From Pusillimonas sp. T7-7 (GTDB lineage Bacteria; Pseudomonadota; Gammaproteobacteria; Burkholderiales; Burkholderiaceae_B), in contig NC_015458.1 of the NCBI RefSeq assembly GCF_000209655.1, positions 248,001 through 312,000 on the forward strand: a stretch of 64,000 bases of DNA, written 5' to 3'. Each line of letters begins with the position of its first letter. Within the stretch, counting starts at the first letter, position 1. The translations under genes were made by a program, and so were the position numbers. The notes under the pieces are model-generated. The model had not been told where the DNA came from and ran no database searches. It saw only the letters and a program-made list of their open reading frames with translations. Positions 39,328 to 64,000 of this stretch are shown here, piece by piece.

Positions 39328-39361
39328 GCATCACAAATGTGTCATATTGAGTAGGTAGCAT
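39328..39361 (+). promoter_or_regulatory. Pho box plus -10 before signalling module 1
   Basis: GCATCAC (39328-39334), AAAT, GTGTCAT (39339-39345), 10 bases, TAGCAT (39356-39361). The spacing matches PhoB-activated sigma-70 promoters. The start codon of the STN gene is 28 bases downstream of the -10. Confidence 0.65.
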
Positions 39362-39388
39362 GGCGACTTTCATCCTCGATCAATTAAA

Positions 39389-40096
39389 GTGGCTGTGCTC
39401 TTGCCTTGTTCGCGCACTGCTGCGGTGCTGATCAGCATGCTCGGATTGGCTGCGTCAATCTCCAAGGCAGCCACCCCTGTTGTTGGGCAGTTGTCCGTGC
39501 CGGTTCGGGCCGCTCATGCCGGGGCGCCGCAGTCCTTCGTCTTCAGTATGTCGCCTGAACCCTTGCACGACGCGCTTCAGCAGTACAGCCGCATTACGGG
39601 CGTGTCGGTGCTTTACGACACGGGCTACGTTGCCGACAAAAATTCATCTTCCGTGCATGGCGCCTATTCGTCTCGCGAGGCGTTGGAACGACTGGTGGCA
39701 GGCACCGGGCTGCAGGTGCGTTATGCCTCGACCCGAGCCTTTACCTTGATGCCCAAGCCAGAGCCCGAGCGAAATCGGGCCGCCCGGTCGCCGTTGAACC
39801 CGGCACGGCAACAGTACTTCGGCCGCCTGCAGTCGCGCATTTTAGATGTGTTGTGTGCCGATCCGGCCATTGAAGCGGGTCGCTACAGATTGGTGCTGCG
39901 CTTTGGCGTCGGCACTGATTACAAAATAGGCCCGTTGCAGGTTGTCGCGAGCGGTCGATCAGAGTTGGAGCCGGCCATACACGCCGCGCTGTCGGGGCTG
40001 GACGTGGGGGCGGCGCCTCCGGCCGCTTTTGAGCAGCCTGCGACCATGCTGATCACTCCCCAATCTGCGCGACGCTATGGGGCGTGCCCGCCATGA
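39389..40096 (+). CDS. Short STN-domain signalling protein, VreA-like, module 1 (235 aa)
   Basis: This periplasmic protein has a signal peptide (about 1-28) and an STN secretin/TonB short domain (about 48-125: FVFSMSPEPLHDALQQYSRITGVSVLYDTGY ... ALERLVAGTGLQVRYA), but no beta-barrel and no plug. The C-terminal ~80 residues (RLQSRILDVLCADP ... YRLVLRFGVG ... ATMLITPQ) look like a TonB_C-type fold. This is the architecture and size of VreA of the P. aeruginosa PUMA3 system, which signals through a FecR-like protein to an ECF sigma. GTG 39389 is used; ATG 39437 is an alternative. It overlaps the sigma gene by ATGA. Confidence 0.88.
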   Translation: MAVLLPCSRTAAVLISMLGLAASISKAATPVVGQLSVPVRAAHAGAPQSFVFSMSPEPLHDALQQYSRITGVSVLYDTGYVADKNSSSVHGAYSSREALERLVAGTGLQVRYASTRAFTLMPKPEPERNRAARSPLNPARQQYFGRLQSRILDVLCADPAIEAGRYRLVLRFGVGTDYKIGPLQVVASGRSELEPAIHAALSGLDVGAAPPAAFEQPATMLITPQSARRYGACPP

Positions 40097-40611
40097 GCGG
40101 CAAAGGGTTGGCGCAGTTCGCCAGGCTCTTGACCGAGCGTTACGAAACGCTTAAGTCGCAGGTGGCTCGCCGCTTGGGTTCCTCGTCAGATATGGCCGGC
40201 GACGTGTTGCATGATGCCTATGTACGTTTGGCTGGGCAGGATAACCTGAGCGAAGTGCGCTATCCCCAGTCTTATCTGGTCAATACCGCCGTGCATGTGG
40301 CCATCGACAAGATTCGCAGCGATGCGCGCATGCTTAGCGCAGCGGAGGTAGGCGCTTTTTTCGACGTCGAAGACAGTGCGCCCGGCCCTGTGCAAACCGC
40401 GCAGGCGCGGGACGAGCTTGCGCGCATGTTCAAAGTGCTCGACAGCCTGCCGCCGCGCCAGTGCGATATTCTGGTGTCCGCGCGCGTGCATGACGTCTCT
40501 CGCATCGATCTGGCTAAACGCTGGGGCATTTCCGTTCGTTTGGTTGGCCGTGAACTGCAGACGGCTCACGAATTTTGTTTTCGCGCGATGAAAGAATTAG
40601 AAGAAAAGTAA
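40093..40611 (+). CDS. ECF sigma factor, FecI/VreI-like, module 1 (172 aa)
   Basis: This is a two-domain alternative sigma factor. Region 2 is at about 15-85 (RYETLKSQVARRLGSSSDMAGDVLHDAYVRLAG ... YPQSYLVNTAVHVAIDKIRSDAR) and region 4 at about 115-165 (MFKVLDSLPPRQCDILVSARVHDVSRIDLAKRWGISVRLVGRELQTA). It resembles iron-starvation/surface-signalling sigmas. ATG 40093 overlaps the STN gene stop; the second module has the same ATGAGCGGCAAAGG junction. Its targets are probably the GTTCC/CGTCTA elements nearby, including the tpsA promoter. Confidence 0.92.
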   Translation: MSGKGLAQFARLLTERYETLKSQVARRLGSSSDMAGDVLHDAYVRLAGQDNLSEVRYPQSYLVNTAVHVAIDKIRSDARMLSAAEVGAFFDVEDSAPGPVQTAQARDELARMFKVLDSLPPRQCDILVSARVHDVSRIDLAKRWGISVRLVGRELQTAHEFCFRAMKELEEK

Positions 40612-40640
40612 AAGAAATGTGTATGTGCTTTGTAAATTGC

Positions 40641-40670
40641 GTTCCTGTTTCAGAGATGCCAATCGTCTAT
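40641..40670 (+). promoter_or_regulatory. ECF-type promoter in front of fecR-like gene 1
   Basis: GTTCC (40641-40645), 18 bases, CGTCTAT (40664-40670). The same pair occurs in the equivalent gap of module 2 (55949) and in the tpsA2 promoter (57097). No Pho box is near this copy, so the sigma alone may serve it. Confidence 0.5.
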
Positions 40671-40708
40671 AAGAAAAGGGCTTCACTTGACTGGGTGTGT
40701 TTCTACCG

Positions 40709-41692
40709 ATGATCCGTGACTTGACCGGTAATGAGGTGTCTGTTGAACGGCGCGCGGCGATCAAGGCCGAGGCCGATGCCTGGGCGCGTGAGCTGGCCAC
40801 GGGTCGGCCTACCACCCAAGATGGCGAGATTTTTAGGCGCTGGCGCGCGCAAAGTCCCTTGCATGAACAAGCTTGGGTGCAGGCGGCGCGCGACTGGCGC
40901 AAGCTGGGTAGTATTGCGCAAGCCTACGACGCGCAGCGCAGTGCCACGGCGGCCCGATCAGCGTCGCCGCGTATGGGGCGGCGCGTGTTCCTGGGCGCCG
41001 CGGCCTCGGCGTTTGGCGCCTTGGCCGTTGTCGCTGTCGTGCGGCCCCCCTTGGGGCTATGGCCCTCGTGGACCGAACTTGGCGCCGATTATCGAACCGC
41101 CACCGGCCAGCAGCAAGAGCTTGCCCTGGACGGTCGGATACAGGTCCTCATGAATACGCAGACGAGCCTGAATGTGCAAACGTCCGGTCAATCCGCGCGT
41201 TTGGAGCTGCTGGCCGGCGAGGCCGCCGTATCGGCGCGGCAGGGCAGCGCATGTGAAATATGGGCGGGCGATGGCCACATCAGCCTGACATCGGGTGATA
41301 TAGAAGTGCGCCGCATGCAGGGCGATCAGGTCAGGGTGCGCTGCACGCAGGGTGGCGCACAGCTAAGCCATCCATTCGGCGTGGCCTCCTTGCAGGCAAA
41401 CCAGGCACTGACGTATGACAGCCGGCACCTGGGTGCGCCCGTTGACATCCAGCCCGAGCCCAGCGCATGGCGTCAAGGCATGGTGGTGTTTCATAATTTA
41501 CCCCTGGACGAAGCGGTTCAAGAGATCAACCGTTATCGACCCGGACGGGTGGTGCTGATGAACGACGCACTGGCGCAGCGGCGCCTAAGCGCCCGTTTCG
41601 AAGTGGGTGCGCTGGATGAGGCCATCACTCTGATTGAGCAGTTGTACCAGGCCAAGGTACGCCGCGTAGGCGATGTGGTGGTGTTGACCTGA
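40709..41692 (+). CDS. FecR-family anti-sigma factor, VreR-like, module 1 (327 aa)
   Basis: The cytoplasmic N-terminal domain (about 1-80, AWARELATGRPTTQDGEIFRRWRAQSPLHEQAWVQAARDWRKL) binds the sigma. A single membrane segment follows (about 92-110), opened by GRRVFLGAAASAFGALAV, which has a twin-arginine pattern. The periplasmic FecR domain (about 125-230) leads to a C-terminal STN-like segment (FHNLPLDEAVQEINRYRPGRVVLMNDALAQRRLSARFEV), which should contact the STN protein. It ends 155 bases before the first giant tpsA. GTG 40697 is an alternative start. Confidence 0.9.
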   Translation: MIRDLTGNEVSVERRAAIKAEADAWARELATGRPTTQDGEIFRRWRAQSPLHEQAWVQAARDWRKLGSIAQAYDAQRSATAARSASPRMGRRVFLGAAASAFGALAVVAVVRPPLGLWPSWTELGADYRTATGQQQELALDGRIQVLMNTQTSLNVQTSGQSARLELLAGEAAVSARQGSACEIWAGDGHISLTSGDIEVRRMQGDQVRVRCTQGGAQLSHPFGVASLQANQALTYDSRHLGAPVDIQPEPSAWRQGMVVFHNLPLDEAVQEINRYRPGRVVLMNDALAQRRLSARFEVGALDEAITLIEQLYQAKVRRVGDVVVLT

Positions 41693-41718: not shown

Positions 41719-41776
41719 TTGTCATAAAAACTTCATGGCTCAGGTGTGCCGATTGGCGCCGTTGAATTCGACTATG
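41719..41776 (+). promoter_or_regulatory. Composite Pho box/ECF promoter of tpsA1
   Basis: TTGTCAT (41719-41725), AAAA, ACTTCAT (41730-41736), 9 bases, GTGCC (41746-41750), 18 bases, CGACTATG (41769-41776). The tpsA2 promoter has the same order and the same 9-base gap. A short hairpin (CCAAGC/GCTTGG, 41794-41808) follows in the 5' UTR. Confidence 0.65.
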
Positions 41777-41847: not shown

Positions 41848-44800
41848 ATGCCAAGGTCCGTGCCTGCTACAAAAAACACCCCGTCCACCTTTGTGTCGGA
41901 GCCCCCGGGTTTGCGCGCCCGATTAGCTAAGGTTAAGCGCGGCGGCCTGACATTGCGTCTGACCCCCCTGGCTTCGGCCCTGATTCTGGTGGCTAGCGGT
42001 TTGACCGCTCCCGATGTGCAGGCTAAGACGCGCCCCTTTAGCAGCGGCTGGTTCGCTGCCAAGGGTGCGGCGCAGACGCAGGCGGCCCGTACCGGCAGGT
42101 TACCCAACGGAATGCTGGCCGGCATCAATCCAGCGGCTCGCCAGCAGCAGGCCGCGCGCAAGCAACTGAATCGTTCAGTGCAGAACCTGGGCAGTGCGGC
42201 GGCGGCCATTGCCGCCCAGCAGGCGGCGCAGGCGGCGGCGCGGGCCGCGGCGGCCCACGAACCTTCGGCGGCCGACGGGCTGGCCGAGGGCGGCCTGAAG
42301 GTCGATGCGGACCCGCTGACGGCCGGCTGGCTCAATGCCAAGGCGCCGGTGCAGACCCAGGAGGGCGGGCGCACCACGGTGACCATCGAGCAGACCGGCG
42401 ACAAGGCCATTCTGAACTGGGAGACTTTCAATGTGGGCCGGAATACCACGGTGCAGTTCCAGCAAAAGCGCACCGACGCGGTGCTGAACCGGGTGAACGA
42501 CCCCCAGGCGCGCCCAAGCCAGATCCAGGGCCAGATCAAGGCTGATGGTACGGTGATGGTCGTGAATCGCAACGGCGTGGTGTTCTCAGGCTCCAGCCAG
42601 GTCAACGTGCGCAACCTGGTGGCCGCAGCGGTGGACATGAGCGATGCGCAATTTCGTGAACGGGGTATTTACAGCGCCGAGGCCGGGGATAATCTCTACA
42701 CCCCCAGTTTTGGCAACAACCTGAGCGGTTCAGGAGCGTCCACGACATCGTCTGCCGCAACGGGAGATGTCATTGTTCAAGCCGGTGCGCAGATCCATAC
42801 CCATAAACCTGCCTCGGTGACCCAGGGCGGCGGTTACGTACTGCTGTTGGGCCGCGAGACGCATAACGACGGCCACATCAGCACCCCGCGTGGCCAGGCG
42901 ACACTGGCCGCTGGCGACAGTTTCATCATCCGTAAGGGGAGTGGTACGGATGGCAATCAGACTTCCACGACCCGAGGAAACGAAGTGGCTACCCGTCGGG
43001 TGGCGGACAGTGAGGCCGGGTTGGTGCGTAACACTGGGTTGATCCAGGCCAGCACTGGAGACATCACCCTGACCGGCCACGCGGTCAAGCAAGAAGGTGT
43101 AGCTGTCGCTACCACCTCGGTAGATCAGCGCGGCACCATCCATCTGCTCAATAGCGTTAGTGATAACGAAGGTGACGTGACACTGGGAGACGGTAGTGTC
43201 ACGCTCGTCCTGCTGGAAGACAGTGACAACACTGCACTGGACTCGCAGCGGGAGGGCCGGTTGACGCTCCCATTAGGCGGTGTTGGTGATTTCGACAATC
43301 TCAGCGGCGTGGCCGATCGTGGGGATCTATCGCGTATTGAGATCGTTAGTGGCGGCCGGGTGACGTTCGCGGATGATTCAATGACCTTGGCCACTGGCGG
43401 TGAAATAGTGGCGACGGCGCTCGAGCGCGCCACGGTGGCTGATGGCGCGATGATAGATGTTTCGGGGGCTGTAGGTGTGAAGATGGCTATGGAGGCCAAC
43501 AGTCTTCAGATCAATATTCAGGGCAATGAGCAGCGTGATGCACCGGTCAATCGGGATTCGGGCACACTTAACAGTGAACGTGTTTGGATTGATATACGGA
43601 AATTGATTTATGTGCCCGCTGGCACCCATGGCTACGAGTCTGACCGTTGGTACACTGCCGGCGGACTGCTGGAAGTGGGCGGTTATCTAGCTAATCGGGG
43701 GCGCCCAGTTGGAGAGTGGATGGCTCAGGGAGGGACTGTCACCTTCACTGGCGGCGAAGTGGTAACGCAGCGAAGTTCACAGATCAACCTCTCCGGTGGC
43801 ACACTGGATGTGCAGACCGGCTATATGAATCTTAGTTGGCTGAAAGGTGATGATGGGCGGCTATATGAGGTCTCGCGGGCACCGGCGGACGTGCTCTACA
43901 CCGGGATTTACAAGGGTTATGAATACGATAGCGAACGCTGGGGCCAGACGGATTATTACTATAACCCGCTGATTGGGCCGCGGCGCCGGTTGGAGAATGG
44001 TTATACGGTAGGCCGGGATGCCGGCAAACTCGTGGTGTCTACGAATGAAGCCACGCTGGAAGGCGATCTGGTCGGTGAGGTGTATCAAGGTGACCGACAG
44101 GACCGGGCGCCGCAAGCCGGTCTGGAGGGGTATTACCAATCGCAGAAAGCCCTTGCCCGGCGGGCGCAACTGGTGGTGGGACAATACATCCCCTATTACC
44201 TGAAAGACGAAGGCCGCCTGGGCTATCAGTTCAATCCGACCGTGGATACTGTGCAGATCGGTGGCGCCGCCACAGACGGTGCCCTGATGCTCAACGCGGA
44301 CTGGCTCAACAGCCAGCAACTGGGCGGACTGAAGGTGGCGGCGCGTGAGCACATTGCCGTGGAGGAAGCGCTGCAACTGGCCACCGGCGGCGCCTTGCAG
44401 CTCTACAGCACCCTGGTGGACGTGAACGCCGATATCACTGCGCACGGTGGTGATATCCGGCTGGGTAATGTGGCCCGTCAGGCGGTGGGACAGGTGGAAC
44501 GGGATGATGTTCTGGACGACGTTCCGGCCGGCCTGCAGGCCGGCGTCACCGTTGCGGAAGACGTCCGCCTGGATACGACCGGCCTGTGGACCAACGAACG
44601 GACCGGCGGTGATGCCCGGGACCGCGCCTGGGTGAATGGCGGCAATATCTCCCTGCGCAGCACGGGTGATGTGCAACTGCTGGCGGGCAGCGAGGTGGAT
44701 GTCTCTTCTGGCGCGGCCTATAGCCGCCAGGGTGAGTTTGTTGGTGGGCGCGGTGGCGATGTCACCCTGGTGGCCGGGCACAACAACAATCCGGGTAGCT

Positions 44801-47800
44801 TGATACTGGACGGCCGGCTCAATGCGATCGGTGCCGAAGGAGGAGGCACCCTCCATATTGATACGAGCCAGGCCGTGGTAATTGCCGACGACAGACCGGC
44901 GGACGAGCAGGCCGCCTGGTTGCTGCCGTCGCTGTTTGCCAGCGGTTTTTCCCATTACGACATCGCCGGACGCGGCGGACTGGACATTGCGGACGGGACA
45001 CAGGTAGAGGTCACGGTGCCGGTCTACCGCCCCACGCAGGCCAGTCGTGACCAGGCGGATGATGTGGCAACCAGCAATGTTCTGGAAGTCTGGTTACCGC
45101 CTGAACATATCCAGGCATACCCCGCTCGTACGGCGCTCCGGCAACGGTATGGGGCCAGTATTACCCTGACGGCAGGTGATCAGCGGGGAACGGGAACCAC
45201 GGCAAACTTTGCTGATGCCCGGATCGGAGAAGGTGCCGTGCTGCGTGTGGATGCGGGGCAGACGATCTCGTTACTGGGCACCGGCAATATTCATGTGGAA
45301 GGTTCGCTTGTTGCCCCGGGCGGCGACATCTTTATTGGCGACTTGCCATTGCTTGAGGCGGCCAGTGAATCGCGGCGCTCGAACCCGGCGGTGCTGGACC
45401 GTGTCATCGAAATCGGTGCCGGGGCTCGCCTGAATGTGGCGGGCCGGGCCTATACACAGAACACCGCCGATGGCCAGGCTTTCGGCGTGGTCCGTGACGG
45501 CGGGCGTATCCGTATTGGCGGCGATGTCGATCCGTCCAGTGGTGCCGCCGACGGGGCCATGGATGCCTTTGTCGTGATTCGCGACGGTGCTAGGCTGGAC
45601 GCTTCCGGTGCCCAGGCAACGGTGATTCCTGCCGGCCTTGCGGCACCGGCCGAACTGGCGTCTCGCGGTGGCGAAATCCAGTTGGCATCCAATAACGGCC
45701 TGCTGTTGCACGGCGATATGCAGGCTGGCGCGGGGGGAGAGGGCGCATCCGGCGGGTTGCTTAGCCTGGTGCTGGGTGCGCCGATTTACCTCAATACGGC
45801 ACCCTCGGCGACGCGCGCCTACCGGGAACTGGTCGTTAGCGACAGCGTCGTGACGAACCCGGATCAGCCACCGGTATTCGGTCAGGCGGCGCTGAGCGCG
45901 GAGCAGGTGCGCGAAGGCGGCTTTGACCAGCTCAGTCTGTTGAGTGAAGGGGTGGTGAGTTTCGAAGGCGACGTCACACTTGCGCTGGGTCGAAGCCTCT
46001 CGGTGTATGCCCAGGTCATGGGGCTGGGGAAAGACGCAGCCAGTGATGCGCGGGTGAATCTGGAAGCGCCTTATGTCCTGCTTGCGGGCGCGCCGGGGCA
46101 GAAGGACGTGCTCACAGGCAGATTCAGACCGCAGCTCAATGCCGGCGGGACTGGCGCCTTGTCGGCGCTACAGGCCACATCAGCGGCACATCTGACCGTT
46201 GAGGCGGGCCTCATTGACGTGCGAGATCAAGTGCGTACCAGCATCAGCGCGTCAGCGGTTCCCGGCGGTGGTGAGGCGATAGACCGCGTGGGCTTTGATC
46301 AGGTCAGCCTGAGCAGTACAGGGGATCTGCGGTTTCTCAATAATGTCGCGGATATTGAGACAGCGTTGACACTACCGGGTGATCTCGATATTACCGCGGC
46401 ACAGGTCTATCCGGCGACCGGGGCTTCAGCGACCATAACGGCGGGTTATCTCACCAGCACGCTGCTGGATTCTGAACGCACGCTGAGTATCTCCCGATCC
46501 ACCCACGGTGATCTGCCAGACCAGCCACACTCGGTATTCGGTACGCTGGAATTGCGTGCCGGGATCATTGAGCAAGCAGGTGTACTTCGCGCGCCCCTGG
46601 GCCAGCTCCGGCTGGGTCGGCCAGGTACTGGACGTAGTGCAGAACGTGTGGTCCTGGCCCCGGGCAGTATTACCTCAGTCAGTGCGGCAGGTCTGATGAT
46701 GCCTTATGGCGGCACCGTGGACGACATCGCCTGGTTGTATGGCGCTGAGGAAATCGATATCAGCGCACGGCAGTTGGCGGCGTCATCGGTGTCGGTTGCG
46801 ATCAATGCGGGCAGTGTCTCCGTACAGGATGATGCGGTCCTGGATCTGTCTGCGGGCGGAGACTTACTGGGGGCTGGATTTATCCCCGGACGAGGTGGTT
46901 CCAGTGATGTGCGTTTCTCACCGCTGATTCGTGTGACAGAAGACGGCGTGATGTTTCCAGAACTTGCCACCAACCCGGTCTACGCCATTGTGCCTGGAGT
47001 GGTCTCTGGCTACGCCCCTGCTGATCCGACGCCCGGCGTTGTCGCGCCGTTGACAGGCCAACAGATCACGATTGGTGATGGTGTACCGGGGCTTGCGGCA
47101 GGTACCTACACCCTCATGCCCTCTACGTATGCACTGCTGCCGGGTGCGTTCCGCGTCGAAATCAATGGCGATGCTCTGGCGACAGGCACCGCGCCGATGC
47201 GCAATGGTTCCTGGATTGCGCCGGCGCACTTCTCGATTGCCGGCACAGGAATCAGCGACGTGCGGCCCCGCCAGATCCTCCTGACGCCGGCGGATCTGGT
47301 GCGTCGTTACTCTCACTACAATGAAGCCAGCTATAGCGATTTCGTGCGCCAGTCAGCAGCAACTCTGGGTACAGCCCGTGCTGAACTGCCTGATGATGCG
47401 CATGCGTTGATACTCGGCCTGAGCGGAGAGCACGGTGATCTGCCCGCATTTGAATTTGCCGGCACACTGCGTGCGGACCGCACGGAGGAAGGGGTGGGTG
47501 CATCCATTTCCGTGGCGCAGGCGAGAGACGCAATCTCCATGGAGGTAGTGTCCTCAGAGCGGGGTGCCACGGAAGATTTCGAGGGCATTTCCCTGACGGC
47601 GGAGTCACTGAACCAGCTGGCGGAAAATGCGGAGCGCCTGCTCATTGGTGCTGCAATGGAAGCAAACGCCTCGCGACCCGGATGGCTGACGGTGACCGGC
47701 AGGGGCGGGCTCACGGTGCGTGAGGGCGCCCACCTGTCCGCAGCGGAGGTGATTTTGGGTGCCGCGCGAGGTAATGCAGCGCCAAATAATCGTCTGGTGA

Positions 47801-54567: not shown

Positions 54568-54612
54568 TTGTCATAAAAATGTCACTTTAGTTTCATGAAC
54601 GAGCCGTAATAT
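54568..54612 (+). promoter_or_regulatory. Triple Pho half-site promoter before signalling module 2
   Basis: Three half-sites at an 11-base period: TTGTCAT (54568), ATGTCAC (54579) and GTTTCAT (54590-54596). Ten bases later comes TAATAT (54607-54612), a good sigma-70 -10. It is the clearest Pho promoter of the window. Confidence 0.75.
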
Positions 54613-55392: not shown

Positions 55393-55922
55393 GCGGCAAA
55401 GGTCTTGAGCGCCTGCAGCGTTTGTTGGCCGAACGCTATGAAAGCTTGCGCGTGCAGGTTGCCCGGCGCCTGGGCGGTTCGGCCGACATGGCTTCGGATG
55501 CCTTGCACGACGCTTATCTGCGGGTCTCGACTCGCAAAGACCTGGACGACATCCAGTACCCTCAGACCTACCTGGTGAACGCCGCCGTCAATTCGGCCAT
55601 CGACCAAATGCGCAAGGATGTGCGCTTGGTCAGCGACGATGAGATCGAGTCGATTTTTGAGCAGGCGCGCAGCGACACGCCGGGCCCCGAACAAACACTG
55701 CTGGGGCGCGAGCGTACCGAGCAAGTGCTGCAAATACTGGAAAGCCTGCCCCTGCGCCAAACCCAGATGCTGATCTCGCACCGCGTGCATGGCGAGGACA
55801 CCACACAGTTGGCCCAGCGTTGGGGAATGTCCTCGCGCATGGTGCGCCGGGAAATACAGAAAGCCAACGACGCCTGTATGCAAGCATTGCAAGCGCTGGA
55901 CAAGAAAAACGAATTGCTATGA
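55389..55922 (+). CDS. ECF sigma factor, FecI/VreI-like, module 2 (177 aa)
   Basis: Paralogue of the sigma at 40093 with the same start context. Region 2 (about 15-88) reads RYESLRVQVARRLGGSADMASDALHDAYLRVS and YPQTYLVNAAVNSAIDQMRKDVR; region 4 (about 115-168) reads LESLPLRQTQMLISHRVHGEDTTQLAQRWGMSSRMVRREIQKA. The recognition helices of the two sigmas (KRWGISVRLVGRELQ against QRWGMSSRMVRREIQ) are similar, so cross-talk at each other's promoters is likely. Confidence 0.92.
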   Translation: MSGKGLERLQRLLAERYESLRVQVARRLGGSADMASDALHDAYLRVSTRKDLDDIQYPQTYLVNAAVNSAIDQMRKDVRLVSDDEIESIFEQARSDTPGPEQTLLGRERTEQVLQILESLPLRQTQMLISHRVHGEDTTQLAQRWGMSSRMVRREIQKANDACMQALQALDKKNELL

Positions 55923-55976: not shown

Positions 55977-56016
55977 GATGTAAAGCGGCCTTGTTTTGGC
56001 GGCTGGACGAAAATTG

Positions 56017-57006
56017 ATGAACGCCGATAGCTTTCGCACTGACGCCGATGATGCACTGCTTGCCCAGCTGTGCCGGGAGGCCCGCGCCTGGGCCATCAAA
56101 CTGAAGACCGGCCAGCCCACGACGGAGGACGTCGCGGCGCTGCGCCAGTGGGTGGCGCAAAGCCCGGCCCATGCCCAAGCCTGGTCGGCTGCCGCGCATG
56201 ACTGGAAGACGGTGGATGGGGCCGCGCGCCAGTTCGAAAGCCGGCTACACGAACGGGGCGCTTTGCGTAAACCGTCGCGCGTGTCCCGCCCTTCACGTCG
56301 TTGGTTCCTGGGCGGTGCGGCCAGCGCCTTTGGTGCGCTGGCCGTAGTCGGTATTGTGCGTCCGCCACTAGGCTTGTGGCCGTCATGGTCCGAGCTGGGC
56401 GCCGACTACCGCACCGCTACAGGTGAGCAGCGCGATCTGGACTTGGCCAATAACCTGCGGCTGACCTTGAACACGCAGACCAGCATAACGGTCCATCAAG
56501 TCGATGGCGTGCAGCGCATAGCGCTCATTGCCGGCGAAGCGGCTGTCATGGCCATGCATACCGCCTGTGAAGTGGTGGCCGATGCGGGCCGCTTGGTGTT
56601 GAGCGATGCCGACCTGCAAGTGCGCCGTTTGCCCGACGGGCGGGTGCGCGTGCAGTGCAGGCAAGGCAAGGCGGTATTGCATCACCCCACGGGCACGGCT
56701 TCTTTGCAAAGCGGGCAACAATTGGTTTATACGCCGGGCCAGGTCAGCGGCACCACTGCGGTACCCAACGAGCAAGCGCCCTGGCGTCAGGGCATGGTGG
56801 TGTTCGACGACATGGCCTTGAGTGATGTCGTCGATGAAATCAACCGCTACCGGCCCGGTCGTGTGGTGTTGCTCAACAGCGAGGTGGCCCAGCGCCGCTT
56901 TAGTGCTCGTTTCAAGATCACGGCGCTGGACGAAGCCATAGCCTTGCTCGAAGCCGTGCACCAGATCCATGTGCGCCAGGTGGGCGATGTGGTGCTGCTC
57001 AGTTAG
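56017..57006 (+). CDS. FecR-family anti-sigma factor, VreR-like, module 2 (329 aa)
   Basis: Paralogue of the protein at 40709. It has the sigma-binding N-terminal domain (AWAIKLKTGQPTTEDVAALRQWVAQSPAHAQAWSAAAHDWK), then SRRWFLGGAASAFGALAV, a twin-arginine-type membrane signal, the FecR domain and the C-terminal STN-like part (FDDMALSDVVDEINRYRPGRVVLLNSEVAQRRFSARFKITALDEAIALLE). ATG 56017 is chosen; an earlier in-frame start lies next to the ECF -10. It ends 190 bases before tpsA2. Confidence 0.9.
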   Translation: MNADSFRTDADDALLAQLCREARAWAIKLKTGQPTTEDVAALRQWVAQSPAHAQAWSAAAHDWKTVDGAARQFESRLHERGALRKPSRVSRPSRRWFLGGAASAFGALAVVGIVRPPLGLWPSWSELGADYRTATGEQRDLDLANNLRLTLNTQTSITVHQVDGVQRIALIAGEAAVMAMHTACEVVADAGRLVLSDADLQVRRLPDGRVRVQCRQGKAVLHHPTGTASLQSGQQLVYTPGQVSGTTAVPNEQAPWRQGMVVFDDMALSDVVDEINRYRPGRVVLLNSEVAQRRFSARFKITALDEAIALLEAVHQIHVRQVGDVVLLS

Positions 57007-57069
57007 CGGTGTTGGGCAACCGTGTGTTGGATCACGATGATCAGCGGAAACGGTTTGTTCGTGAGCTTA

Positions 57070-57124
57070 ATGTCATAAAAATTTCATGCGGTTTTAGTTC
57101 CGCGAAACCTGTTTCGAACGTCAG
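57070..57124 (+). promoter_or_regulatory. Composite Pho box/ECF promoter of tpsA2
   Basis: ATGTCAT (57070-57076), AAAA, ATTTCAT (57081-57087), 9 bases, GTTCC (57097-57101), 17 bases, CGTCAG (57119-57124). It combines a Pho box with the GTTCC/CGTC pair seen before both fecR genes. The start codon is 72 bases after the -10. Confidence 0.65.
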
Positions 57125-57196
57125 ATGGTTAGCCTTGGAGTTTGCGCCATGCCGACTCCAACTCGTATTCCCGCCTGGATTTGGAACTGATTTCAC

Positions 57197-60100
57197 ATGT
57201 CTTCGACCGCTTTGGCCACCACTGATACCCGCATTTCTTACGCTCGCCGGCTTGGCGTGAACGCAAGCCGCCGTGCGCGCTTGACTCCCTTGGCCTCGGC
57301 GCTGGCCCTAGTGCTGGTGGCCGGCGGTTTGGCTGCCTCGGATGTTCAGGCTCAATCGCGGCCCTTTAGCAGCGGCTGGTTTGCCGCCAAGGGTGCGGCT
57401 CAAACGCAGGCGGCCCGTACCGGCCGGCTGCCCAACGGGATGTTGGCCGGCATCAATCCAGCGGCTCGCCAGCAGCAGGCCGCGCGCAAGCAATTGAATC
57501 GTTCGGTGCAGAACCTGGGCAGCGCGGCGGCGGCCATTGCCGCCCAGCAGGCGGCGCAAGCCGCTGCCCGGGCAGCGGCCCAGAACGACCCCTCAGTGCC
57601 CGACGGCCTGGGTAAGGGTGGGCTGGAAGCGGCAGTCGGTGAACTGGCCAAGTGGCAAGGCGCCAATGCCCCGGTGCATACGCAAAGCGGCGGCCAGCAC
57701 AACGTGGCCATCAAGCAGACCGAATCGAAAGCCATCCTGAACTGGGAGACGTTCAACGTCGGGCGCAACACCACGGTCAACTTTCAGCAGAAGTCCACCG
57801 ATGCGGTATTGAACCGCGTGGTCGGAGCAGACGTTGCACCCAGCCAGATCCAGGGTGCCATCAAGGGCGACGGCACGGTGATGGTGGTCAACCAGAACGG
57901 CGTCGTGTTCTCTGGCAGCAGCCAGGTCAACGTGCGCAACCTGGTGGTGGCTGCTGCCAATATCAGCGATACCGATTTCAACAACGGTCTGTATAACGGC
58001 GCGAACCCCACCTTCACCAACGCCGAAGGCAAGATCATCGTCGAGCAGGGCGCGATGATCAACACCACCAAACCGGCCAATTCGACTACCGGCGGCGGCT
58101 ACGTGCTGCTGGCCGGAAAAGAGGTGCATAACGCGGGTACCATCACTACGCCGAGCGGACAGACGCTGCTGGCGGCCGGTGATAGTTTCGTCATCAAGCG
58201 CGGCCAGGGTACTGCAGAAAACCAAACCTCCACCACACGCGGCAACGAAGTGACCGCAAGCGGCGAAGGCTCGGTGCTCAATACCGGTCTCATCCAAGCG
58301 ACCACCGGCGACATTACTTTGACCGCCACGAATCTGCGCCAGGACGGCGTGGCCGTAGCCACCACCTCCACGAGCTTGCGTGGCACTGTGCATCTGAACG
58401 CGGTAGGCGCGGATAGCACGATCACTCTGGGCAAAGACAGCACCACCGCCATCTTGCTGGAAGATACCGATGCCACGGCACTGGATAACCAGCGCGACGG
58501 TCTGCAAGGCCCTACTATCGATAACTCGCCTGATACTCAAAACTTCGTGGCTGCCGACCCCACCCGCCGCGAGCTGTCGTTGATCGACATCAAGAGCGGC
58601 GGCACCGTGGACTTTGAAGGCGAATCGCTCACGCTCGCCACGGGCGGTCAGATCATGGTCGATGCCCCGCGTACCTTGGTCAGGGACGGCGCAGAACTGG
58701 ACGTGTCGGGCGCTGTGGGCGTCAAAGTCTCGATGGAGTCGAACAACCTGAAGATCAATATTCAGGGCAACGAGATGCGTGATGCACCGGTCAACCGCGA
58801 CAGTGACCCGGAAAATAACAGAAGTTTGCTCAGTAGCACCGACGTCTGGGTAGACCGACGCAGTCTGGTCTTTGTGCCCGCCGACACCAATGGCTACGAC
58901 ACCGACCGCTGGTACACCGCAGGTGGGCTGCTGGAAGTAAGCGGTTATCTTGCCACCCAAGGCCACACCGTCGGCGAATGGATGGCGCAAGGCGGCATCG
59001 TGCAGTTCAAGGGCAATGACGTCATTACCCAGGCCGGTTCACGCATCAACGTCTCGGGCGGCACGCTGGATGTGCAAGACGGCTTTATCAATCAAAGCTG
59101 GCTGCGCGGCGCCGATGGGCGCTTGTATGAACTCTCGCGCGCACCAGGCGACTTGCTGTACAAGGGTCTGTACCAGGGCTTTCAGACCAATCACCCGCGC
59201 TGGGGCGAGACGGCCACCCGCACCTTTTACAACCCATTGATCGCGCCAAGACAGCGTTTCGAGACTGGGTATACCGTAGGCCGCGATGCCGGCAAATTGG
59301 TGATCAGCACAAGCAATGCCGTGCTGGAAGGCCAGATCGTGGGCGAGACGTTCCAGGGGGACCGCCAGACGCAGGCTGCACAAGCCGGGATCGACGGCTA
59401 CTACCAATCGCAAAGTGCGGTGGCCCGACGGGGGCAGTTGATCGTCGGCAACTACATGCCGTACTACGTCAAAGACAGCGGCACACTGCAGTACGCTTTG
59501 GGTGCCAACGACGATACCCTTAAAAACGTCATTCTGGGCAACACCGCCGAGCAGATTGCCGCTGGCCTGAACCTGGACACGGTCTTGCCCGAAGAGCGCG
59601 AGGGCACGCTCTACCTGAACACCGATCAACTGAACGACGCTAATTTGGGCGGCATTCAGATTGCGGCGGGCAATACCATTGCCGTCGAGAACGATCTAAA
59701 TGTTGCGCATGGCGGTGCCATTACGCTGTACGGCCCGCAGGTGAACGTGAACGCTGACCTGACTGCGCACAGCGGCAGTATCCATCTGGGTAATGTGCTC
59801 AACCAAGTCGGCGACAACGGCTATTTTGATGCGGTGCTATCAGCGCCCGTCGCCGGTGTCACGGTGGCAGGCGGTGCCACGATTAATGCCAGCGGCCTAT
59901 GGAGTAATCTGCTGCTGGACCCGACCAACCGCGCCAACCTGGCTTATCAGCATGGCGGCAGCGTATCGGTTCGCAGTAGTGGCAACGTAACGCTTGAAAC
60001 AGGCAGCTTGATCAACGTGTCGTCGGGCGCGGCGCTACGTGCCAATGGCACCCCGCAAGGCGGGCGGGGCGGTAATGTCACGCTGGCGGCCAGCAGTGGC

Positions 60101-63100
60101 CGCGCGGGCGGTGAACTGACTCTGGATGGCGGCATTCACGGCCATGGCGTGAACGGCGGCGGTACGCTGCAAATCGAAACTGGCTCGACAGTGGTGATCA
60201 GCGGGCAACCGTTGCTGGAAAATGAGGGCTTTCTGGAAGCCGGGCAGGCCGCGCCCATCAATCTGCGGCTTGATGAGCCGTACACCGTGGCGGCCGGTTC
60301 GCCCGCGCCTATGGACACTGCGATGTTCGCGGCTGGCTCAGCTCTGCCTGCTGGAACGGTGTTGGCTAAACGGGTGGCCGTGCAATCGCTGATGATGCTG
60401 GCGTCGGACTTTTTCAATAAAGGTTTTAGCGACTACCAGGTGATCGGCCAGCAGGGCGTCACGGTAGCGGAAGGCGCTCAGGTTAATGTCAGCATGCCGG
60501 TGCTGCGCATGAACGCACAAGCCCGCAGCGCAGCCACGGGCAGTGACCCGAGCGCAGCGTTGGAAATTTGGACCCCGCCCCTGCATCTGGAAAACCCAAT
60601 CGACGGGGTGCTGACTCAACGTCGTGGTGCCAGCCTGAGCCTGCGGGCTGGTAGCGCCAGTTCAACACAAGCCGATATCGCCGTCAATCTGCTGCATATC
60701 GCTCGGGATGCGGTTATCAACGTCGACCCAGGCCAATCCATTGCATTGCAGGGCATCGGCCAGATCACGGTGGACGGCATGTTGAATGCTTGGAGTGGTC
60801 GCATTGAACTGCGTCAGGGTAACGTTGCTGGCGATCTGGGCGACGGCGCTCAAACCTATGTTGCCGACGATGGCCGTTCGATCTGGATTGGTGAAACCGC
60901 TACGCTGGACGTGGCAGCCCGTGCGGTCACGGCCGGGGATGCGCGCGGCAACCGATATGGTCAGGTGCGCAGCGGTGGCAGTATTGTGATTGGGGGAACG
61001 ATTGATCATGCCGCCCGTAATGCCACCTTACCGGTACCCTTTGTCGTGATACGTGAAGGCGCGTTGCTGGATGCCTCCGGTACGAGTGCGCTGCTTGATA
61101 TTCCCGGGCAGGGGGCTACGACGGTTGCCAGCCATGGCGGCAGTATTTCGATGGCCTCACTGGCCGGCCTGTATCTGGATGGTGAGCTACGAGCCAAAGC
61201 CGGTGGTGTCGGTGCCGCCGGCGGCAGTCTGGCGCTCGCCAGTGGCGTGCGCGGTGCCAGTTCGATCACCAGCGACCGGTTGCGACAAGCTCACGAAATG
61301 GTCTTGACGCAAGATAAAGGTGCCAGCCTGCTACCAACCGGCATTACTGCCGGCGAGGCGGCCGATCAGCTGGTCTACGGGCATACCCAGGTGAGTGCCG
61401 ATCAAGTTGAGGCAGGTGGCTTTGATACATTGTCCTTATTTAGCAAGGGAATGATCGCGTTTGATGGCGATGTGAACTTGACCCTCGGGCAAAGCCTGAA
61501 CCTCTACGCTGGTGCCCTGGGCCTGACCCAAGCCGCCGGCGCAAATACACGGGTCAATCTTTCCGCACCGTATGTACGGCTGGCAGGTTCGGTAGCACCA
61601 AGTAGGCCTGATGTCCCTGGCTCATTCTTGCTGGGTATGCATCATGGCGCGGGTACACAGCCGTTGTCGCAACAACCCGAGGCAGGCAGCCTGCGGCTGG
61701 AAGCAGGTCGTGTACTGGATGTTGAAGCAGGCTCAGGTTTGGGCGATGGCGGTAGCCTTACGCTTACCCGACTGGACGGCAGCAGCGAACTGATTGACCG
61801 GCGTGGTTTTGCTGACATGTTGTTGGTCAGCCAAGGCGATATGCGTATTGGTCAGGGCACTTTCTACGCGACGGGCGACTTGACGCTGGCTGCCGCTCAA
61901 GTTTACCCGACCACCGGCGTATCCGCCACGGTGCATGCCGGTTGGCGAGCCAGTGCCGGCTATGACCCTGATCGCCGACTGGTGATTGCCCGCACCACCG
62001 ACAACATACCCACCATGCCGTACTCGGTATTTGGTAGCTTGACGCTGGGTGCAGTGACCATCGATCAGGGTGGCATCATTCGTGCTCCACTGGGAGCACT
62101 TAATATTGGCTATTCCCGTACCCCCCAGCAGACCCAGACGGTCAACCTGCTGCCCGGCAGCTTAACGTCAGTGAGTGCCGGGGGGCTGCTCATGCCCTAT
62201 GGCGGCACGGTAGACGGGCAAGTCTGGCAATACGATGGGGAAGACATCACACTGTATGCGGTGGGAGGAACCCAAGGGGATAGTTTTAACGCTAATCGCA
62301 CACTTCAGGTGGGGGTGTCGTTATTGGGTGAGAGCGTTGATATCCGGCAGGGTGCAACAGTCGATTTGTCTGGCGGTGGAGAACTGCTTGGTGCGGCTTT
62401 TATCTCGGGCCGGGGCGGTTCCACCGACGCACGTTTTCATCCTTTAGTGCAGATCGGTTCAAACGGCTTGAGCCTACCCGGATTAAATACTAACCCCATC
62501 TATGCCATTGTGCCCGGGGTGCAGCAGATTGCCGCACCTGCCGTAGGAGAGTCAGGGGCGGTTGACCCCATGCTGGGTCAGCAGGTCACAATTGGCAGCG
62601 GCGTGCCGGGTCTGGCTGCCGGTACGTACACCTTGCTGCCCTCGACCTATGCCTTGTTGCCTGGGGCGTATCGTGTTGAATTGAACGGTTCAGCGGGATT
62701 AGGGGCGTTGCTTTCGCCTCAGGCGATGCGTAACGGCTCCTGGTCGGCATCGGGTGTACTGTCTATTGCAGGTACTGGTATTCGCGATAATTTGGCCAAT
62801 CAATTGATTCTGACGCCTGCCGATGTGCTGCGCCGCTACTCGCAGTACAACGAAATGCGTTACGCCGACTTCGTGCGTGCCGATGCAGCGCGCTTGGGCA
62901 TACCCCGAGGCATGCTGGAAGCTGATGCCAAGACGCTATCGTTGTCTTTACGTCGCAGCGATACGAGCGATGTTGGTTTTTCTTTTGACGGTACGGTATT
63001 GGGCGAGGCTGCCGAAGGCGGTTTCGGCAGTACCTTGTCGTTAAGCGAGGCGAGTAACGGCAAGATTGAATTGCTTGCCGATGATGGGCATGCGACCGAA

Positions 63101-64000
63101 GGGTATCTTTCAGTTTATGCGTCTGATCTAAGCGCCATGGATGTCAACCGTCTGGTGATTGGTACCCGGCCATTAACAGTCTATGGCCAGGGGGGCAACG
63201 TGGTGGACTTTGGTACCACGGCGCTTACTGCTGCGAATACCATTGTATTGCGCTCAGGTGCCACGTTATCAGCGCCCGAGGTCATGCTGGTCAGTCGGCA
63301 AAGCCACACCAACCCTAGCGGTATTGAAATCGAGCAAGGCGCTTCTATCATCACCTTGGGGCAGGGCAAAGCCGCTTACGATTCGGATGATGGTTTTATT
63401 TACCAGGCGGGTGATAAAAGCGTTGTGGCGGTCTCCAACGGTCGTTTGCAATGGCTGGCACCAGAAGCAGACACCTACGTTGGTCCGGGATCCATCCTCG
63501 TAGGCACTTGCATGGTAGGCGGTTGCGAAGGGCAAACTCAGTTGTATTCTGAAGGCAGCATTACCTTTGCGACAGACAATACTTTCGAGCTGGACGACGC
63601 CGTGCGTTACGGTACCCGCCATCTGACCTTGGCGGTAGGAGCCTTTAACATCGGTAGTGCCCAGGCGCTTGCAGCGGCTGACGCTCGTGGTGCGCTGACC
63701 GCTGGCCTGAGCCTTGACCAGAGCACCCTGCAGCGCTTGTTGCAGGGTGACACCAGCACCGGCGCGCCAGCGTTGGAAACTCTGGAGCTCGCCGCAAGCC
63801 GGTCGATGAACTTTTTTGAATCCGTTACGTTGTCCACTCTGAATGCTCAAGGCGAATCGCTACTGGATAATTTGCTGCTGACCGCACCTGCCATTTATGG
63901 CTACGGCGCGGCAGATGAAGTGGCGTTGATTCAGACCGGCAATCTGATCTGGAATGGCTCGGACGGGCGTCCTGGCGCGGTCGCTGCGGGGGGTGCCGGT
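57197..64000 (+). CDS. Second giant TpsA filamentous-hemagglutinin-like exoprotein, cut by the window (at least 2268 aa)
   Basis: Paralogue of the protein at 41848; the frame is open from ATG 57197 to the last base. The signal peptide ends near residue 56 (RLTPLASALALVLVAGGLAASDVQA). Residues about 58-135 and their DNA are nearly identical to TpsA1 (RPFSSGWFAAKGAAQTQAARTGRLPNGMLAGINPAAR). The TPS domain shows ILNWETFNVGRNTTVNFQQK (about 180) and VNQNGVVFSGSSQVNVRNLV (about 230). The body follows the order of TpsA1 as far as seen, with local insertions such as GTCMVGGCEG (Cys pair, about 63506-63535). The C-terminus, and whether a toxin or DUF3739-type end follows, are outside the window. It has its own signalling module and composite promoter but no TpsB of its own here. 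Confidence 0.92.
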   Translation, partial: MSSTALATTDTRISYARRLGVNASRRARLTPLASALALVLVAGGLAASDVQAQSRPFSSGWFAAKGAAQTQAARTGRLPNGMLAGINPAARQQQAARKQLNRSVQNLGSAAAAIAAQQAAQAAARAAAQNDPSVPDGLGKGGLEAAVGELAKWQGANAPVHTQSGGQHNVAIKQTESKAILNWETFNVGRNTTVNFQQKSTDAVLNRVVGADVAPSQIQGAIKGDGTVMVVNQNGVVFSGSSQVNVRNLVVAAANISDTDFNNGLYNGANPTFTNAEGKIIVEQGAMINTTKPANSTTGGGYVLLAGKEVHNAGTITTPSGQTLLAAGDSFVIKRGQGTAENQTSTTRGNEVTASGEGSVLNTGLIQATTGDITLTATNLRQDGVAVATTSTSLRGTVHLNAVGADSTITLGKDSTTAILLEDTDATALDNQRDGLQGPTIDNSPDTQNFVAADPTRRELSLIDIKSGGTVDFEGESLTLATGGQIMVDAPRTLVRDGAELDVSGAVGVKVSMESNNLKINIQGNEMRDAPVNRDSDPENNRSLLSSTDVWVDRRSLVFVPADTNGYDTDRWYTAGGLLEVSGYLATQGHTVGEWMAQGGIVQFKGNDVITQAGSRINVSGGTLDVQDGFINQSWLRGADGRLYELSRAPGDLLYKGLYQGFQTNHPRWGETATRTFYNPLIAPRQRFETGYTVGRDAGKLVISTSNAVLEGQIVGETFQGDRQTQAAQAGIDGYYQSQSAVARRGQLIVGNYMPYYVKDSGTLQYALGANDDTLKNVILGNTAEQIAAGLNLDTVLPEEREGTLYLNTDQLNDANLGGIQIAAGNTIAVENDLNVAHGGAITLYGPQVNVNADLTAHSGSIHLGNVLNQVGDNGYFDAVLSAPVAGVTVAGGATINASGLWSNLLLDPTNRANLAYQHGGSVSVRSSGNVTLETGSLINVSSGAALRANGTPQGGRGGNVTLAASSGRAGGELTLDGGIHGHGVNGGGTLQIETGSTVVISGQPLLENEGFLEAGQAAPINLRLDEPYTVAAGSPAPMDTAMFAAGSALPAGTVLAKRVAVQSLMMLASDFFNKGFSDYQVIGQQGVTVAEGAQVNVSMPVLRMNAQARSAATGSDPSAALEIWTPPLHLENPIDGVLTQRRGASLSLRAGSASSTQADIAVNLLHIARDAVINVDPGQSIALQGIGQITVDGMLNAWSGRIELRQGNVAGDLGDGAQTYVADDGRSIWIGETATLDVAARAVTAGDARGNRYGQVRSGGSIVIGGTIDHAARNATLPVPFVVIREGALLDASGTSALLDIPGQGATTVASHGGSISMASLAGLYLDGELRAKAGGVGAAGGSLALASGVRGASSITSDRLRQAHEMVLTQDKGASLLPTGITAGEAADQLVYGHTQVSADQVEAGGFDTLSLFSKGMIAFDGDVNLTLGQSLNLYAGALGLTQAAGANTRVNLSAPYVRLAGSVAPSRPDVPGSFLLGMHHGAGTQPLSQQPEAGSLRLEAGRVLDVEAGSGLGDGGSLTLTRLDGSSELIDRRGFADMLLVSQGDMRIGQGTFYATGDLTLAAAQVYPTTGVSATVHAGWRASAGYDPDRRLVIARTTDNIPTMPYSVFGSLTLGAVTIDQGGIIRAPLGALNIGYSRTPQQTQTVNLLPGSLTSVSAGGLLMPYGGTVDGQVWQYDGEDITLYAVGGTQGDSFNANRTLQVGVSLLGESVDIRQGATVDLSGGGELLGAAFISGRGGSTDARFHPLVQIGSNGLSLPGLNTNPIYAIVPGVQQIAAPAVGESGAVDPMLGQQVTIGSGVPGLAAGTYTLLPSTYALLPGAYRVELNGSAGLGALLSPQAMRNGSWSASGVLSIAGTGIRDNLANQLILTPADVLRRYSQYNEMRYADFVRADAARLGIPRGMLEADAKTLSLSLRRSDTSDVGFSFDGTVLGEAAEGGFGSTLSLSEASNGKIELLADDGHATEGYLSVYASDLSAMDVNRLVIGTRPLTVYGQGGNVVDFGTTALTAANTIVLRSGATLSAPEVMLVSRQSHTNPSGIEIEQGASIITLGQGKAAYDSDDGFIYQAGDKSVVAVSNGRLQWLAPEADTYVGPGSILVGTCMVGGCEGQTQLYSEGSITFATDNTFELDDAVRYGTRHLTLAVGAFNIGSAQALAAADARGALTAGLSLDQSTLQRLLQGDTSTGAPALETLELAASRSMNFFESVTLSTLNAQGESLLDNLLLTAPAIYGYGAADEVALIQTGNLIWNGSDGRPGAVAAGGAG

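What the first reader, a model, noticed from the sequence alone, without database searches (positions are those of the whole stretch)
39328..64000. Two complete STN-sigma-FecR modules, each wired to its own giant TpsA, sharing one TpsB/ExbBD/TonB set
Seen: STN protein without barrel, ECF sigma and FecR anti-sigma at 39389-41692, then a 4215-aa TpsA; the same four-gene order again at 54715-64000. Only one TpsB (27659) and one ExbB/ExbD/TonB set are present. Known: P. aeruginosa has a single vreA-vreI-vreR set and a single pdtA with pdtB, exbB2, exbD2. Inference: duplication of the whole signalling-plus-exoprotein cassette, giving two separately sensed giant surface proteins that use one exporter.
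Basis: partly seen in the sequence, partly recalled or inferred. Interest (0 to 1): 0.8.

Follow-up and report, generated by a model that had tools for sequence, protein, structure and literature searches.

The report
Four giant exoproteins sharing one exporter
A probably mobile stretch of a bacterial chromosome carries four giant surface-protein genes, each apparently switched on by its own sensor set under a common low-phosphate switch and all served by one exporter; the plan was first noted in other bacteria in 2009, and comparison with relatives suggests that the giant proteins are exchanged between switches.

Summary
The genome has four STN-sigma-FecR modules (39389, 54715, 74113, 76554), four giant TpsA genes and one ShlB-type TpsB. 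It is a PUMA3/vreAIR-type system; four-fold repeats with one tpsB were reported for R. palustris and Janthinobacterium in 2009, so it is a new member of a known kind. The modules are old: none is nearest to another own module on the regulator trees. Among 250 family genomes, all 86 STN-sigma-FecR-TpsA cassettes found lie in the 38 genomes with a close TpsB, 37 with one copy. Pho boxes are enriched before TpsA and STN genes, not before FecR, and TpsA promoters vary with sigma lineage; by promoter, displaced TpsA4 belongs to sigma3. Its body is 91% identical to a Bordetella petrii TpsA under another regulator lineage: passengers appear to be swapped between regulators. A tRNA-Ser with integrase and conjugation genes flank the cluster. 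TpsA4 is frame-broken in this assembly. Nothing was measured.

The parts
27659..29317 (+). TpsB (ShlB/FhaC-type exporter, POTRA_2 + ShlB), the only ShlB match in the genome; Pho-box-like site (15 of 18, reverse orientation) at about 27249
29360..31324 (+). ExbB/TolQ-like proton channel with an N-terminal DUF2341 + laminin-G-like part
31337..31756 (+). ExbD
31760..32584 (+). TonB (TonB_2 / TonB family C-terminal domain)
32657..34405 (+). putative porin (Porin_5); counterpart of PA0696 by order and annotation (inferred)
34592..36984 (+). protein with SMC-like (coiled-coil) weak matches (34592-35347), YbjN-like (35368-35949), PpiC-type isomerase (35962-36984): same order as PA0697-PA0699 as described in the papers
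38770..39264 (+). second small TonB-like protein (TonB_2, 16.2 bits, under the cut-off of 22)
39389..40096 (+). module 1 STN protein (VreA-like), no barrel; weak Pho-box-like site upstream at 39328 (shuffle P 0.025)
40084..40611 (+). module 1 ECF sigma
40612..40696 (+). sigma-FecR gap with a CGTCTATA element (inferred sigma-dependent promoter), no Pho box (P 0.915)
40697..41692 (+). module 1 FecR anti-sigma
41719..41776 (+). TpsA1 promoter (inferred): Pho box TTGTCATAAAAACTTCAT, then a CGAC element 32 bp behind it
41848..54495 (+). TpsA1, 4215 aa, TPS domain 164-446, DUF3739 tail 3997-4107
54568..54585 (+). Pho box before STN2 (TTGTCATAAAAATGTCAC, 16 of 18)
54715..55392 (+). module 2 STN protein
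55380..55922 (+). module 2 ECF sigma
55996..57006 (+). module 2 FecR anti-sigma
57070..57127 (+). TpsA2 promoter (inferred): Pho box ATGTCATAAAAATTTCAT, then a CGTC element 31 bp behind it
57197..64000 (+). TpsA2, runs on to 70078 (4293 aa); beyond the window follow modules 3 and 4, TpsA3 and TpsA4

Best explanation
A PUMA3/Vre-type system multiplied to four units around one exporter. Low phosphate (PhoB) turns on the STN-sigma operons and is also needed at the TpsA promoters. In each unit the FecR protein holds its sigma until a cue, through the STN protein, lets it go; the freed sigma then transcribes its own TpsA together with PhoB, and its own FecR as a brake. All TpsA proteins leave through the one TpsB, possibly helped by the adjacent ExbB/ExbD/TonB. 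TpsA4, separated from module 3 by module 4 and TpsA3, is predicted to answer to sigma3. Conserved promoter and secretion-domain ends let the large middle parts be exchanged between units. Shown by sequence: gene content, single TpsB, promoter elements and their co-variation with sigma, old lineages, the chimeric make-up of TpsA4. Inferred: PhoB and sigma dependence, sigma-FecR-STN mechanics, export by this TpsB, the sigma3-TpsA4 link, any role of the TpsA proteins.
For: One ShlB-type TpsB and four TPS proteins genome-wide. Of 250 family genomes 38, own included, have the close TpsB (others 57-84% identity; next hits 22-27%), 37 with one copy; 0 of 86 four-part cassettes lie in a genome without it. 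Pho boxes (13 or more of 18): before TpsA 43 of 86 (1.9 expected), before STN 46 of 95 (2.4), sigma-FecR gap 1 of 48 (0.3), coding control 0 of 95 (1.8). CG[AT]CTA: sigma-FecR gap 20 of 48 (shuffled 1.4), before TpsA 27 of 86 (2.8), before STN 7 of 95 (5.0). Promoter similarity vs sigma identity: r 0.83 over 34 promoters, 0.54 over 19 representatives, 0 of 2000 permutations each. TpsA4 promoter 80% like that of L060, module-3 lineage. STN fold matches PupB/FecA-type signalling domains. P. aeruginosa precedent for PhoB + sigmaVreI at pdtA (passages).
Against: No expression, secretion or binding data. VreA was dispensable in P. aeruginosa, so the STN step may be wrong. Pho-box-like sites before STN1, STN3, STN4 and TpsA4 are weak (shuffle P 0.025, 0.025, 0.09, 0.02), and about half of the relatives' TpsA and STN genes lack a match at the cut-off. 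Loci counted include close relatives and are not independent. The promoter of TpsA1 is ambiguous: its best match is a module-4-lineage promoter and sigma4 identity fits it as well as sigma1's (r 0.75 vs 0.61). Promoters also correlate with the TPS domain over all 34 (0.59), though not over representatives (-0.05). TpsA4 is frame-broken and may be dead. Likeness of TPS domains within genomes is small and vanishes at the strictest cut.
Confidence: 0.66

Rival explanations
1. Recent in-genome duplication of one whole signalling-plus-TpsA cassette.
For: Same gene order in the units; TpsA proteins 70-88% identical in alignment columns 100-300, and identity at four-fold sites raised between TpsA2 and TpsA4 in one window (84%).
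Against: Own modules are 0.36-0.58 identical to each other in STN, sigma and FecR, but modules 2, 3 and 4 are 0.54-0.77 identical to one B. petrii BT1 9.2 module each; the own rows need 4 label changes on each of the FecR, sigma, STN and TPS trees (starred branches alone force 3, 4, 3 and 2).
Confidence: 0.06
2. The four sigmas are redundant: they read the same promoters, so the units form one regulon under phosphate control and not four separately sensed outputs.
For: All promoters share CG[AT]C elements; the TpsA1 promoter fits sigma4 lineages (r 0.75) as well as sigma1 lineages (0.61).
Against: TpsA2 and TpsA4 promoters fit only one lineage (sigma2 r 0.52, sigma3 r 0.67; all other sigmas negative).
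Confidence: 0.25
3. The cluster is a decaying island remnant: module 3 is an orphan and TpsA4 a pseudogene; only some units work.
For: TpsA4 tail out of frame; module 3 has no TpsA next to it; a transposase-like HTH ORF (106727) follows soon after TpsA4.
Against: TpsA1, 2 and 3 are open over 12.5-12.9 kb each; their promoters keep Pho box and -10-like element.
Confidence: 0.2
4. Ordinary iron-siderophore cell-surface signalling with TpsA genes beside it by chance.
For: sigma, FecR and STN of module 1 match FecI, FecR and FecA models, though far under their cut-offs.
Against: All 4 STN found in the genome are barrel-less and lie here; 10 TonB-receptor barrels over the cut-off lie elsewhere without an STN match; 86 of 104 VreR-like loci, own four included, have the order STN-sigma-FecR-TpsA.
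Confidence: 0.03

Closest known systems
PUMA3 (vreA-vreI-vreR) with pdtA, pdtB-exbB2-exbD2-tonB4-PA0696..PA0699, Pseudomonas aeruginosa (PMC2729926, PMC4971064, PMC7035377; passages seen)
   Same: STN protein without barrel, sigma, FecR; TpsA; TpsB followed by ExbB, ExbD, TonB, porin, YbjN-like and PpiC genes; Pho box plus sigma element before TpsA.
   Different: One unit there, four here; no Hxc type II genes among the cluster genes I annotated (not searched genome-wide); a sigma-type element without Pho box before FecR here, while vreAIR is described as one operon.
Four-fold PUMA3 repeats of Rhodopseudomonas palustris and Janthinobacterium sp. (PMC2729926, passage seen)
   Same: Four modules, several tpsA, a tpsB with exbBD and a PA0696 homologue.
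   Different: There three clusters precede a tpsA and the fourth the tpsB; here four tpsA, with module 4 + TpsA3 lying between module 3 and TpsA4, on an apparent mobile island.
Exchange of the TpsA 3' end in Neisseria meningitidis (PMC3848433, abstract and outline seen) and CDI systems (PMC5422565, passages seen)
   Same: Recombination replaces part of a TpsA while the secretion part stays.
   Different: There 3' cassettes linked to growth inhibition and immunity; here nearly the whole body differs, behind different sigma units; Pfam found no toxin domain in TpsA1 and TpsA2, the two scanned.

Membership tests
PUMA3/Vre-type signalling | STN protein lacking a beta-barrel, followed by sigma and FecR | tested here: met
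PUMA3/Vre-type signalling | TolA/TonB-like C-terminal domain of the STN protein | tested here: inconclusive
   No Pfam hit; Foldseek hits to HasB, TonB and TolA domains only at E about 0.03-0.3; pTM of the model 0.48
PUMA3/Vre-type signalling | Linked tpsA, and tpsB with exbB-exbD-tonB-porin-YbjN-PpiC | tested here: met
PUMA3/Vre-type signalling | Pho box at module and tpsA promoters | tested here: met
   strong before TpsA1-3, STN2 and TpsB; weak before STN1, STN3, STN4 and TpsA4; sequence match only, no binding test
PUMA3/Vre-type signalling | sigma, FecR and STN group with VreI, VreR and VreA in a tree | not tested
   P. aeruginosa sequences were not fetched
PUMA3/Vre-type signalling | Induction by low phosphate through PhoB and sigma | not testable with these tools
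   needs expression data
Two-partner secretion | TpsA with N-terminal TPS domain and TpsB with POTRA + ShlB barrel | tested here: met
Two-partner secretion | This TpsB exports all four TpsA | not testable with these tools
   only co-occurrence:
Integrative conjugative element | tRNA-side integrase, flanking direct repeat, conjugation genes | tested here: met
   tRNA-Ser, integrase, 16-bp repeat, TrwC, TrwB, TrbI, CagE/TrbE/VirB and T2SSE families
Integrative conjugative element | Empty site in relatives | tested here: inconclusive
   tRNA flank kept in 3 of 3 genus relatives at 86-89%, but the right flank matched only at 70-75% and not next to it

The most novel reading that the evidence does not exclude
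A hub-and-cassette surface system: one exporter per genome, many phosphate-gated sigma units whose promoter and secretion domain stay put while the 3000-4000-residue TpsA bodies are exchanged between units and species, spread by a conjugative island. Promoter type, not position, decides which sigma drives which giant protein (sigma3 drives the displaced TpsA4).
Probability: 0.45. Interest if true: 0.68.

Novelty: new member of a known kind. Interest (0 to 1): 0.47.

Why it matters
It turns a single-copy system of P. aeruginosa into a natural set of parallel units in one cell: the unknown cue and the unknown role of the VreA-like STN protein become testable by comparing units that differ in regulator and passenger. 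It also suggests a way in which bacteria may change very large surface proteins without losing their export signal or control.

Tried and rejected
Recent duplication: disfavoured by trees ('quick' trees with SH-aLRT support, many forks open; the sigma, STN and TPS trees used only 34, 35 and 33 rows around the own modules, while one search used 104 FecR rows). Extra divergence of sigmas within a genome: apparent in a crude test (z -2.9), gone in the paired test, so dropped. TPS domains tracking the shared exporter: crude test z 2.6, 2 of 500 shuffles as high; paired test 14 of 16 genomes (p 0.008), 13 of 17 (p 0.023), 10 of 16 (p 0.38) at three lineage cut-offs, regulators at best p 0.065: weak support only. 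Empty-site test: what follows the tRNA in the three genus relatives (1.5 kb each) matches nothing in the 176 kb held, and the right flank matched elsewhere at 70-75%: inconclusive. That G182 is B. petrii BT1 9.2 is inferred from equal contig lengths and places. Second domain of the STN protein: weak matches only.

Limits of the passenger test: TpsA4 was assigned to module 3 by its promoter. FecR identity of the B. petrii host module (L061 = L017) to the own modules is 0.54, 0.60, 0.51 and 0.47, highest for module 2, whose lineage it shares; if TpsA4 answered to sigma2 this would not be a swap. The second event (L016 against the Pigmentiphaga loci L020, L022, L024) lies inside the wider module-3 group of the FecR tree, with FecR 0.53-0.54 and bodies 75-77% alike, so it is a weaker case.

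Rows left out: of 105 VreR-like loci read off the list by hand, 100 were fetched and 5 dropped as partial or split. Searches used the 77 modules with all four parts long enough; one search kept 35 promoters (own TpsA4 among them) of 87 regions, those with a Pho-like 17-mer (11 or more matches) 30-34 bp before CG[AT]C, so it cannot test that spacing; can. The L060 promoter was taken from L016, the same locus, upstream of its TpsA, because about 1.9 kb lie between FecR and TpsA there. One search scored at most 8 and at most 5 candidates a genome, so counts at those limits are lower bounds. Literature: searches list 8, 15, 8, 20 (of 553) and 15 (of 16) papers; I opened six, as passages or abstract.
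Full report
Observation. The window is C1:248001-312000 of a 3.92-Mb genome in two contigs. Reading past the window shows two more STN-sigma-FecR modules, back to back (74113-76418 and 76554-78871 in window numbering), then TpsA3 (78967-91527, 4186 aa) and TpsA4 (91671-103679, 4002 aa). Genome scans at E <= 0.001 find 4 STN domains, 4 TPS domains, 5 FecR (4 here) and 1 ShlB-type TpsB. Ten TonB-receptor barrels score over the cut-off, none at an STN place. So every STN protein found in this genome belongs to this cluster.

TpsA4 is broken near its end in this assembly: the stretch that resembles the ends of TpsA1-3 by eye lies in another frame than the body (ORF 103519-104214). It may be a pseudogene or an assembly error.

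What it is. Gene content and order around TpsB (ExbB with a DUF2341/laminin-G-like part, ExbD, TonB, Porin_5, a coiled-coil-like protein, YbjN, PpiC) match the description of P. aeruginosa pdtB-exbB2-exbD2-tonB4-PA0696-PA0699 (passages). The model of the module-2 STN protein (mean pLDDT 84, pTM 0.48) matches the signalling domains of PupB, FpvA and FecA in its first half (best 6ovm chain B, from the PupR complex entry, E 1.2e-7, TM-score by target 0.87); the matches to HasB, TonB and TolA domains are weak (E about 0.03-0.3). In 49 aligned relatives two cysteines (147 and 223 of the module-2 protein) are invariant, perhaps a disulfide in the second domain (inference).

Known before. Llamas et al. 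[quoted passage not shown] The arrangement is therefore not new. A review (PMC5422565, passages) says that a TpsB can have more than one partner, though this is not the rule. In the rows listed by my searches (open-access library only) I saw nothing on exchange of TpsA bodies between sigma units; the nearest is the meningococcal 3'-end exchange (PMC3848433, abstract).

How general. Of 250 genomes of the family, 38 (own included) have a TpsB close to this one (57-84% identity in the others; the next hits are 22-27%), 37 with one copy and one with two. I fetched 100 of 105 VreR-like FecR loci; with the four own ones, 95 of 104 have STN and sigma, and 86 have the full order STN-sigma-FecR-TpsA (own module 3 counts among those without a TpsA next to it). 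All 86 lie in TpsB-bearing genomes; 3 of the 38 TpsB genomes have no such module among the loci fetched (two of them because only partial hits were dropped), and counts run up to 8 modules with one TpsB (8 is the scoring limit). The three other genomes of the genus that were searched have neither modules nor this TpsB at E <= 1e-30.

Descent. On FecR, sigma, STN and TPS-domain trees the four own units never form one group (4 changes each; starred branches alone force 3, 4, 3 and 2). Modules 2, 3 and 4 each have a near relative in B. petrii BT1 9.2 (FecR identity 0.60, 0.68 and 0.75 against 0.50-0.56 among own modules); module 1 has no clear partner. Pairwise identities of STN, sigma and FecR correlate at 0.86-0.91, but with the TPS domain at 0.50-0.57 (77 modules). 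In a paired test TPS domains within one genome are slightly more alike than expected in 14 of 16, 13 of 17 and 10 of 16 genomes at three cut-offs (p 0.008, 0.023, 0.38), the regulators not (lowest p 0.065).

Promoters. Against a recalled Pho box consensus, matches of 13 or more of 18 occur before TpsA in 43 of 86 (1.9 expected from shuffles), before STN in 46 of 95 (2.4), between sigma and FecR in 1 of 48 (0.3; only gaps of 60 bases or more) and in a coding control in 0 of 95 (1.8) (many loci are close relatives, so they are not independent). In this genome the sites before TpsA1, TpsA2, TpsA3, STN2 and TpsB are strong (shuffle P 0.01 or less), before TpsA4, STN1 and STN3 weak (0.02-0.025), before STN4 weakest (0.09); none stands out before FecR1-4 (0.34-0.94). 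A -10-like CG[AT]CTA is enriched in the sigma-FecR gap (20 of 48, shuffled 1.4) and before TpsA (27 of 86, 2.8), hardly before STN (7 of 95, 5.0). In 24 promoters with a strict Pho box the first CG[AT]C lay 31-33 bp behind it in 17; in the five with a first match at 26 a second one follows at 33; two (57, 25) do not fit. This is the layout described for pdtA in P. aeruginosa, where PhoB and sigmaVreI are both needed (passages).

Which sigma drives which TpsA. Over 34 TpsA promoters that passed the filter, promoter similarity correlates with sigma identity at 0.83 and with FecR at 0.86, over 19 representatives at 0.54 and 0.50 (0 of 2000 permutations each); with the TPS domain at 0.59 over all (0 of 2000) but -0.05 over representatives (1430 of 2000). 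The TpsA4 promoter scores 0.80 against that of a B. petrii TpsA in the module-3 lineage (L060; next best 0.57) and has the same unusual Pho box (TGTAAG...), also seen in L072 of that group. So TpsA4 is predicted to be the target of sigma3, with module 4 and TpsA3 lying in between. TpsA2 fits sigma2 only and TpsA3 fits sigma4 best; TpsA1 is not clear, since its promoter fits sigma4 lineages as well as sigma1's.

Passenger exchange. Behind its first 450 residues the TpsA4 body is 91% identical over about 2800 residues to a B. petrii TpsA (L017) that stands behind a module of the module-2 lineage; residues 43-242 are instead nearest to own TpsA2, and DNA identity to L017 rises from 72-75% to 96% between about 92,300 and 92,800. 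Of the pairs among 39 loci (four own), 23 share a body at 65% or more over at least 800 residues; in 19 the FecR proteins are 0.84-0.97 identical, in 4 pairs (two events) 0.50-0.54. Of the 21 pairs with FecR at 0.70 or more, 19 share the body; own module 4 and L012 (FecR 0.75) have bodies 29% alike, and L033 and L038 (FecR 0.87) 48% alike. The TpsA4 case depends on the promoter-based assignment and would not count as a swap if sigma2 drove TpsA4; the second event lies inside the wider module-3 group.

Setting. tRNA-Ser(gct) lies 4.5 kb before the window, followed by a tyrosine integrase; a 16-bp copy of the tRNA end lies at 143670 in window numbering, and TrwC, TrwB, TrbI, CagE/TrbE/VirB and T2SSE family proteins lie between the cluster and that repeat. 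In 4-kb steps the cluster has G+C 0.58-0.70; the rest of the 176 kb read has 0.51-0.61. A conjugative island carrying the cluster is likely; the empty-site test was inconclusive.

Mechanism. Recent work on FoxA/FoxR (PMC11637429, passages) shows that a signalling domain can guard its anti-sigma protein from proteolysis before the signal. Applied here (inference): the STN protein guards FecR, and its second domain senses something at the outer membrane. That would fit the finding that vreA is dispensable for sigma activity in P. aeruginosa (passages), though those data do not single out this reading. PhoB gates all units; each sigma adds its own cue and drives its own FecR as a brake. None of this has been measured here.

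Verdict. Observation confirmed and enlarged; interpretation partly right; arrangement known in kind since 2009. What I did not see in print is the scale (one exporter, up to eight or more units), the promoter-based wiring, and the exchange of giant passengers between regulators.

Noticed in passing
window 36988-37401 and 37263-37901: An Xre/MbcA-type antitoxin and RES-domain toxin pair sits inside the TpsB operon region, between the PpiC gene and a trypsin-like protease gene.
   Followed up: no
window 29360-31324: The ExbB-like protein carries an N-terminal DUF2341 and laminin-G-like part, which seems unusual for a proton channel.
   Followed up: no
window 6228-11018: A 1596-aa autotransporter with extended signal peptide and PATR repeats lies on the same apparent island.
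   Followed up: no
window 1894-2820, 11731-12411, 18478-20415, 23069-23749: KorB/ParB, RadC-like, ParB_N and DNA methylase genes, as in the backbone of integrated conjugative elements.
   Followed up: partly
window numbering 70131-71558 (-) and 72899-74023 (+), beyond the window: A DegQ-like (trypsin + PDZ) protease and a Wzz-like protein lie between TpsA2 and module 3; a Pho-box-like site stands before the Wzz gene (14 of 18, P 0.005).
   Followed up: partly
L148 (G044) and L086 (G068): The STN match falls into two pieces: in L148 in two successive open stretches, in L086 in two different frames; possible broken STN genes.
   Followed up: no
L143, L150-L156, L158: Nine VreR-like FecR genes, all from genus g2, have no STN, sigma or TpsA match beside them: a separate FecR group.
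   Followed up: no
L104, L111, L115, L119: Four modules, all from genus g4, are followed not by a TpsA but, 1.5-1.7 kb on, by another sigma-like gene.
   Followed up: no
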